Assembly (NCBI RefSeq): GCF_042242105.1
Contig: NC_092027.1
Span: 14,733,721-14,797,720 of the forward strand
Reading direction: 5' to 3'
DNA: 64,000 nucleotides
Source of the DNA: Pempheris klunzingeri
Taxonomy: Eukaryota > Chordata > Actinopteri > Acropomatiformes > Pempheridae
The notes under the pieces are model-generated. The model searched no databases and was not told the DNA's origin. It saw nothing but the letters and a program-made list of their open reading frames with translations. Shown piece after piece: positions 17,001 through 19,204 of the stretch (position 1 is its first letter; every line of letters begins with the position of its first letter). Both the position numbers and the translations under genes were made by a program.

Positions 17001-19204
17001 ATAACATCCTCCTGCCACAGGGCAGGTCAGTGAAGATGATGAAATGAACAGCTGCATACATCTTTTGAACTGTTACACCTATCAACTGTTATCCAATCTC
17101 GGGGGGGAAAATACAATTAAGTGCTGAAATCTCACCTGTGTCTACACACTGCGGTCTTTTTCCAGGCCGTTGGTCTTCCAGCAGCCAGTGATCTTCTTGG
17201 GTGCAGATGTGACTCATCCGCCTGCAGGAGATGGAAAAAAGCCCTCCATCGCTGCTGTGAGTAACATCACACCACGCAACACGAACTTCTACCCTTCACA
17301 AAATCCTTAAACGGGCTGTAATGTCACTGCCAAAATCACAGTGAATCACCAACCATCTCTGCAGCACTTCAGCTTCTTTCAACTCATTGTTTTGTACCAT
17401 TGCCGGCACATGTATTTAATGGCCGAGTCTCAGCTGCTCACAGCAACCCCCACTGGCAGCCATTCCCTGCAAAAGCTGCACACACACAAAGTTACAGAGA
17501 GTTGGGGAAAATTAAACGTTGCCTCTAACTTCCACATTTGAAAATAGGCAAATGTTTAAGCCATAACAGTTTTACAAGTTGGTGAGGCAGCAGTAGCTTC
17601 AGATCTGTATGCATGGTTTGATGTTTTTCTACTTAAAGTTGCCCAAAATCCACTAATGCAGCTTTAATGAATAAATATACAGTGAGATAAACTTAGAAAC
17701 CAAATACCTGTTTCAAACTTGCAAATAAAGAGCAACACTAGACAACTCCCTTGACCAAGCATTGGTCCTGACAGTGAACCTGTCAGCAAGATGGCAGAAA
17801 CTGTCTATCACGGGGTGTATTGAATGTGCATGAGTTCCCTAAGATACATAAAAGCTTTGGTACTAGATTGATATGTCGTTTTCAGGTCGTCGGTAGTATG
17901 GATGCCCATCCCAGTAGATACTGTGCGACAGTGCGGGTGCAGCAGCACCGTCAGGACATCATCCAGGACCTGGCGACCATGGTGAGGGAGCTGCTCATTC
18001 AGTTCTACAAGTCCACCCGCTTCAAGCCCACTAGGATCATCTACTACCGCGATGGCATCTCTGAGGGCCAGTTCAACCAGGTGATACACGTGAGGATGAT
18101 AATGAAGAATAAACTATGAAATATCAGAGAAATAGAAGTACCAGTATAAGAAAATAATAATGGATGTTAATATCTTAATATATGTGTTTATGTCGGTGTA
18201 AAGTTTTAATGCATTCAGTTAGTGTGATTTTCTGCAACTTCAGTTAATCTTTAATATCTTTTTAACTTTAATACATGCAGGTCCTTCAGCATGAGCTGCT
18301 GGCGATCCGTGAGGCCTGTATAAAGCTGGAGAAGGACTACCAGCCTGGTATCACCTTTGTAGTCGTGCAGAAGAGACACCACACAAGACTCTTCTGTATG
18401 GACAGAAATGAGAGGGTCAGTGTTGTAGGAATTTTTCCCGTCTTTCTAACCAACATTATTAAATGTAGCCTAACCATCCTAAGACGCTAAAGTATTTTGT
18501 GTGGATTTTCAAAGGTTGGGAAGAGCGGGAACATCCCTGCAGGCACCACAGTGGACACCAAAATCACTCACCCATCAGAATTTGACTTCTACCTTTGCAG
18601 CCACGCTGGCATTCAGGTAAGAATTAGGATCAGCTGTAACTGAACCAATATACTAAACTGGCCACAAGCCTGTGAGATAAGGAATTAAAATGTTGGGGCA
18701 GATTAATAATTAATGGGTTTTAACGGCTCATCAGACTGTTGACGGTGCAGACAGAGTTTTCCCTCCTAAAAGCAACACCTGTCTTTTGTTATCACTGTTT
18801 GCAGGGTACCAGCAGGCCGTCTCATTACCATGTGCTCTGGGACGACAACCACTTCTCTTCGGATGAACTGCAGGTCCTCACCTACCAGCTATGCCACACT
18901 TATGTGCGCTGCACCCGGTCAGTTTCCATCCCAGCACCAGCTTACTACGCCCATTTGGTGGCTTTCAGGGCGCGCTATCACTTGGTGGACAAAGAGCATG
19001 ACAGGTAAGGACTCTGAGCCATTTGTTGCCACCCTTCAAGCGTAACCTTATGAAAACGTTCATGATTTGTAATTTTTATCATATTGCTGTTTCAGTGCCG
19101 AGGGCAGTCATACGTCAGGCCAGAGTAACGGCCGTGACCAACAGGCCTTGGCCAAGGCCGTTCAGATCCACCAGGACACCCTGCGCACCATGTACTTTGC
19201 CTGA
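8059..19204 (+). CDS. ago2: Argonaute 2, miRNA effector (complete, 20 coding exons)
   Basis: Coding exons: 8059-8077, 9330-9377, 11554-11734, 11824-11944, 12046-12227, 12790-12926, 13021-13155, 13441-13528, 13669-13816, 13918-14037, 14867-14989, 15137-15270, 16031-16215, 16866-17025, 17166-17256, 17886-18080, 18281-18415, 18515-18616, 18805-19004, 19096-19204. Sum 2613 nt, 870 residues; human AGO2 has 859. All introns are GT-AG and phases match. Residues such as [42 protein letters not shown] and the end TLRTMYFA favour AGO2 over AGO1/3/4. Order is N domain, PAZ (about 246-359), MID (5'-phosphate pocket Tyr540, Lys544) and PIWI (about 528-829). Catalytic residues are Asp608, Asp648 (Glu637 in human), Asp680 and His818. 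Tyr677 replaces human Phe666. These two changes match those reported to impair slicing in teleost Ago2, so it probably acts mainly in miRNA repression. Confidence 0.97.
9330..9377 (+). other. ago2: ago2 exon 2: 48-nt in-frame extra exon
   Basis: Flanked by TTTGTAG and GTAAGT and phase 1 at both ends, it inserts 16 residues ([16 protein letters not shown]) between MYSSAG and [13 protein letters not shown]. Human AGO2 goes directly from its short first coding exon to the equivalent of exon 3, so this segment is additional relative to human. Because the length is a multiple of three, skipping it keeps the reading frame (the Gly/Ala junction codon changes only slightly). The inserted segment is Ser/Gly-rich and lies in the disordered N-terminus. 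Confidence 0.75.
9378..11553 (+). other. ago2 intron 2, no gene seen
   Basis: About 2.2 kb of unique, moderately AT-rich intronic sequence. Small reading frames on both strands have no family resemblance. Intron 1 (8078-9329) likewise holds only an 89-residue frame (8878-9147) with no recognisable domain. Confidence 0.7.
14409..14438. repeat. (CA)n microsatellite in ago2 intron 10
   Basis: About 30 bp of CA repeats with one interruption, inside the 829-bp intron between the exons ending at 14037 and starting at 14867. Nothing else was recognised in that intron. Confidence 0.9.

What the first reader, a model, noticed from the sequence alone, without database searches (positions are those of the whole stretch)
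17886..18080. Ago2 carries both fish slicing-impairing replacements (Glu to Asp, Phe to Tyr)
The codon at 17955-17957 is GAC (Asp648) where human AGO2 has catalytic Glu637, and 18042-18044 is TAC (Tyr677) where human has Phe666, three residues before catalytic Asp (Asp680). The other catalytic residues Asp608 and His818 are intact. Published work on zebrafish attributes poor RNAi slicing to two replacements that arose in an ancestor of most teleosts; this sequence has the same kinds of change at the same place. The gene is otherwise complete, so loss of efficient slicing with retained miRNA repression is expected.
Basis: partly seen in the sequence, partly recalled or inferred. Interest (0 to 1): 0.75.

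Follow-up and report, generated by a model that had tools for sequence, protein, structure and literature searches.

The report
Fish Ago2 with two slicing-weakening replacements
This is an intact, probably fish, Argonaute-2 gene carrying the two kinds of amino-acid replacement already linked to weak RNA cutting in most bony fish, so it is a further example of a known condition.

Summary
Window 17886-18080 (+) is a coding exon of an intact Argonaute gene that matches human AGO2 best (1885 bits; AGO1 1672, AGO3 1624, AGO4 1609). Codon 17955-17957 is GAC (Asp) at human Glu637; 18042-18044 is TAC (Tyr) at Phe666. Asp597, Asp669 and His807 are kept. Eighteen coding exons (11554-19204) join GT-AG without internal stop; 786 of 839 compared residues equal human AGO2. 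The interpretation, weak slicing with miRNA repression kept, fits zebrafish work reported in two papers of which I read passages. The source paper is not held; that its two sites are exactly these is recalled. No activity was tested, and no fish sequence or paralogue could be compared. Also seen: human AGO4 has Tyr at the Phe666 site and Gly at the Asp669 site; human Ser387 is Asn here. Known phenomenon, low novelty.

The parts
8059..8077 (+). Candidate first coding exon (MYSSAG + 1 nt), human-like start; uncertain
   Evidence: Best donor score of the three candidates of the right phase that passed the filter in 1-11400; gives an 854-aa frame. Alternatives 9308-9377 and 9338-9377 give 871 and 861 aa.
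11554..19204 (+). Ago2 coding exons 2 to 19, with stop codon TGA at 19202-19204
   Evidence: 18 exons, 17 of 17 introns between them GT-AG, only stop at the end; Pfam ArgoN, ArgoL1, PAZ, ArgoL2, ArgoMid, Piwi above cut-off
17886..18080 (+). PIWI exon that carries both replacements
   Evidence: AG/GT bounded, 65 codons
17955..17957 (+). GAC, Asp at human Glu637 (glutamate finger of the catalytic tetrad)
   Evidence: Alignment to human AGO2 chains, codon read
18042..18044 (+). TAC, Tyr at human Phe666, three residues before catalytic Asp669
17206..17208 (+). GAT, catalytic Asp (human Asp597), intact
18051..18053 (+). GAT, catalytic Asp (human Asp669), intact
18952..18954 (+). CAT, catalytic His (human His807), intact

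Best explanation
This is the ago2 gene of a bony fish (fish origin inferred). Its protein should load guides, bind targets and repress through miRNA seeds normally, but cut extensively paired targets poorly. Shown: the catalytic tetrad reads Asp-Asp-Asp-His instead of Asp-Glu-Asp-His, and Phe666 is Tyr. Inferred: Asp at the glutamate-finger site is one methylene shorter and cannot hold the waters of the catalytic magnesium well, and Tyr666 disturbs the surroundings of Asp669, so that the chemical step is slowed rather than abolished. Residual cutting would suffice for favoured substrates such as the miR-451 precursor.
For: Residues and frame. Orthology by score. Role of the glutamate finger (hydrogen bonds to waters at magnesium site B; critical for cleavage, dispensable for RISC assembly in humans): passages of PMC10772731. 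Teleost slicing defect from mutations in an ancestor of most teleosts, ancestral residues in two sterlet Ago2 copies: passages of PMC7765534. Zebrafish embryos repress a seed-matched target, while a nearly fully matched guide had no significant effect: passages of PMC11811051. Human AGO4 also has Tyr at the Phe666 site, with Gly at the Asp669 site.
Against: No activity data for this protein. Both replacements are conservative. The source paper could not be opened, so the exact published sites are recalled. In the zebrafish test the fully matched and seed-matched groups did not differ significantly either. The review presents miR-451 in all vertebrates, zebrafish included, as a sign that AGO2 slicing mattered for vertebrate evolution, so slicing is not absent in fish. 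No fish Ago2 sequence was available for alignment (searches confirmed no relative, in collections of viral and of bacterial and archaeal contigs).
Confidence: 0.9

Rival explanations
1. The protein slices well because other changes (53 of 839 compared residues differ from human, 16 of them in the PIWI region) compensate for the two replacements.
For: The 14 other PIWI-region differences are untested; Asp keeps the charge of Glu.
Against: Zebrafish embryos behave as poor slicers in a reporter test (PMC11811051 passages), though I could not compare the zebrafish sequence with this one.
Confidence: 0.06
2. The fish slices efficiently through another Argonaute (for example an Ago3 with an intact tetrad), so RNAi is not lost in the animal although this Ago2 is weak.
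For: PMC7765534 notes that zebrafish kept duplicated ago3 (passage). That human AGO3 keeps the four catalytic residues is recalled.
Against: Zebrafish embryos show poor cutting overall (passages). The paralogues of this genome could not be searched.
Confidence: 0.08
3. Assembly or sequencing error, or a pseudogene.
For: The first coding exon is not certain.
Against: Eighteen exons intact, canonical splice sites, one terminal stop, 93.7% identity to human AGO2 over 839 residues. Two separate errors giving exactly these two changes is very unlikely.
Confidence: 0.01

Closest known systems
Teleost (zebrafish) Ago2 with impaired slicing (Chen, Sive and Bartel 2017, known here second-hand)
   Same: Ago2 orthologue with two PIWI-domain substitutions; Glu to Asp and Phe to Tyr as recalled
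   Different: No difference shown; this sequence has no activity data and no fish sequence was available to compare
Human AGO2
   Same: 786 of 839 compared residues, three of four catalytic residues, the six Argonaute Pfam domains
   Different: Glu637 is Asp, Phe666 is Tyr, Ser387 is Asn, plus 50 other differences in the compared part
Human AGO4
   Same: Tyr at the Phe666 site
   Different: AGO4 has Gly at the Asp669 site, which is Asp here; lower overall score (1609 against 1885 bits)

Membership tests
AGO2 orthologue of the AGO subfamily | ArgoN, L1, PAZ, L2, Mid and Piwi domains | tested here: met
   Six Pfam families above cut-off
AGO2 orthologue of the AGO subfamily | Closer to AGO2 than to AGO1, AGO3 or AGO4 | tested here: met
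   1885 against 1672, 1624 and 1609 bits to solved chains; no tree was built
Slicing-competent AGO2 | Asp-Glu-Asp-His catalytic tetrad | tested here: not met
   Asp, Asp, Asp, His
Slicing-impaired teleost Ago2 | Two substitutions, Glu to Asp at 637 and Phe to Tyr at 666 (human numbering) | tested here: met
   the identity of the published sites is recalled
Slicing-impaired teleost Ago2 | Source organism is a teleost | not tested
   Window unnamed; own-genome search unanswered nine times; inferred from short introns and the two residues
Slicing-impaired teleost Ago2 | Low cleavage rate on fully paired targets | not testable with these tools
   Needs a biochemical assay

The most novel reading that the evidence does not exclude
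Fish Ago2 was remodelled beyond its active site into a mainly miRNA-repressing protein: besides the two catalytic-site changes it lost the regulatory Ser387 (Asn here) and changed the PAZ pair Arg315/His316 to Lys/Tyr, so that guide handling and phospho-control, as well as cutting, differ from mammalian AGO2.
Probability: 0.12. Interest if true: 0.4.

Novelty: already known. Interest (0 to 1): 0.2.

Why it matters
It adds one more Ago2 consistent with the known teleost slicing defect, and predicts that siRNA or shRNA knockdown will work poorly in this fish while miRNA repression is kept. It gives no new principle.

Tried and rejected
Pseudogene and assembly error were considered and rejected. 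AGO1, AGO3 or AGO4 identity was rejected on score. Known RNA families in the window, in the hope of the miR-451 locus: 0 matches at gathering threshold. Relatives of the 65-residue PIWI exon in viral contigs (5 pattern stretches, none confirmed) and in bacterial and archaeal genomes (49 pattern stretches, none confirmed). Neighbouring stretches against Pfam: 4 of 7 matched; the three without a match came from 48970-49335, 52704-52985 and 53334-53600. A search of the window for a zebrafish-like N-terminal motif that I recalled gave no hit. Promoter, repeat, tRNA and structure-prediction tools were not used, because they could not bear on slicing.

Only asked for the substitution names (E637D, F666Y, E651D, Y680F); 26 of its 27 papers were listed, and the listed hits for those four names were, by title, papers on other subjects. 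Passages of PMC11100590 and PMC4159003 gave nothing on teleost Ago2 slicing.

Full report
Observation. The exon at 17886-18080 (+) is preceded by AG and followed by GT and encodes 65 residues of a PIWI domain. Aligned without gaps in this stretch to human AGO2 chains, its 24th residue is Asp where human has Glu637 (GAC, 17955-17957) and its 53rd is Tyr where human has Phe666 (TAC, 18042-18044). Asp597, Asp669 and His807 are unchanged.

The gene. I joined 18 coding exons from 11554 to 19204. The 17 introns between them are GT-AG, and the only stop is the terminal TGA. The first coding exon is uncertain. Of the three candidates that passed my donor filter in 1-11400, the best donor follows ATG at 8059 (MYSSAG) and gives 854 aa; starts at 9308 or 9338 give 871 or 861 aa. 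The product has the six Argonaute Pfam domains and scores 1885 bits to human AGO2, against 1672 for AGO1, 1624 for AGO3 and 1609 for AGO4. From human residue 21 on, 786 of 839 residues are identical to chain 4ola. I left the first 20 human residues out of this count because they do not align cleanly. That chain has Asp at 387 in place of the natural Ser; the window has Asn, a difference from either.

Chance. Sixteen of 280 PIWI-region residues differ from human (domain borders recalled). Placed at random, they would hit both 637 and 666 with probability about 0.003; counted over the whole compared protein the figure is about 0.004. The exact residues Asp and Tyr make chance less likely still, although site-specific rates were not modelled.

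Mechanism. Review passages (PMC10772731) describe Glu637 as the glutamate finger, expected to hydrogen-bond waters of the magnesium at site B, critical for cleavage but dispensable for RISC assembly in humans. A shorter Asp should weaken this contact; that step is inferred. The role of Tyr666 is inferred from its place three residues before Asp669. Human AGO4 has Tyr at the same site together with Gly at the Asp669 site.

Literature. PMC7765534 (passages) states that slicing by Ago2 is impaired in most fish by mutations that arose in an ancestor of most teleosts, and that two sterlet Ago2 copies keep the ancestral residues; its figure legend speaks of two substitutions in a short region of the PIWI domain. 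PMC11811051 (passages) attributes weak zebrafish slicing to two point substitutions. In its own test a seed-matched guide repressed the target significantly, while the nearly fully matched guide differed significantly from neither the negative control nor the seed-matched group. [quoted passage not shown] Against a total loss, the review names miR-451, whose precursor AGO2 cuts, as acting in zebrafish, and does not use the words teleost or fish. The source, Chen, Sive and Bartel 2017, is not held. That its sites are Glu637 and Phe666, and that a mismatch in the fish miR-451 precursor helps its cutting, are recalled. None of the passages that I saw names the two residues.

Limits. No fish Ago2 was available for alignment (searches confirmed no relative, in collections of viral and of bacterial and archaeal contigs). 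The window's own genome could not be searched, so paralogues and mir-451 were not examined. That the window comes from a fish is inferred.

Also seen. Position 387 is Asn; three of the five human AGO2 chains printed have Ser there and two have Asp. A peptide in PMC11100590 (passage) confirms Ser387 as the natural residue, and a review passage lists its phosphorylation as important for silencing (PMC7312461). Tyr393, Tyr529 and Pro700 are kept. Human Arg315 and His316 are Lys and Tyr.

Verdict. The phenomenon is already known.

Noticed in passing
window 14867-14989 (exon with human position 387): Human AGO2 Ser387, a regulatory phosphosite, is Asn in this Ago2; consequence unknown.
   Followed up: partly
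window 13669-13816 (PAZ exon): Human Arg315-His316 are Lys-Tyr here; a human R315V/H316A double mutant has solved structures (listed), so the pair has been studied.
   Followed up: no
window 4300-5746 (-): A distal-less homeobox gene in three pieces (DLL_N and homeodomain matches), Dlx5-like by recall, lies upstream of ago2 and divergent from it; its splice sites were not checked.
   Followed up: partly
window 32174-36429 (-): Pieces of a MAGUK gene (PDZ and guanylate kinase, L27 and SH3), resembling MPP6/PALS2 by recall.
   Followed up: partly
window 63371-63658 (-): Piece of a FAM221 gene (Pfam PF14753).
   Followed up: no
window 9308-9377 (+): Open stretch with a good splice donor (MSFL...SASS) that could be an alternative first coding exon of ago2.
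   Followed up: partly
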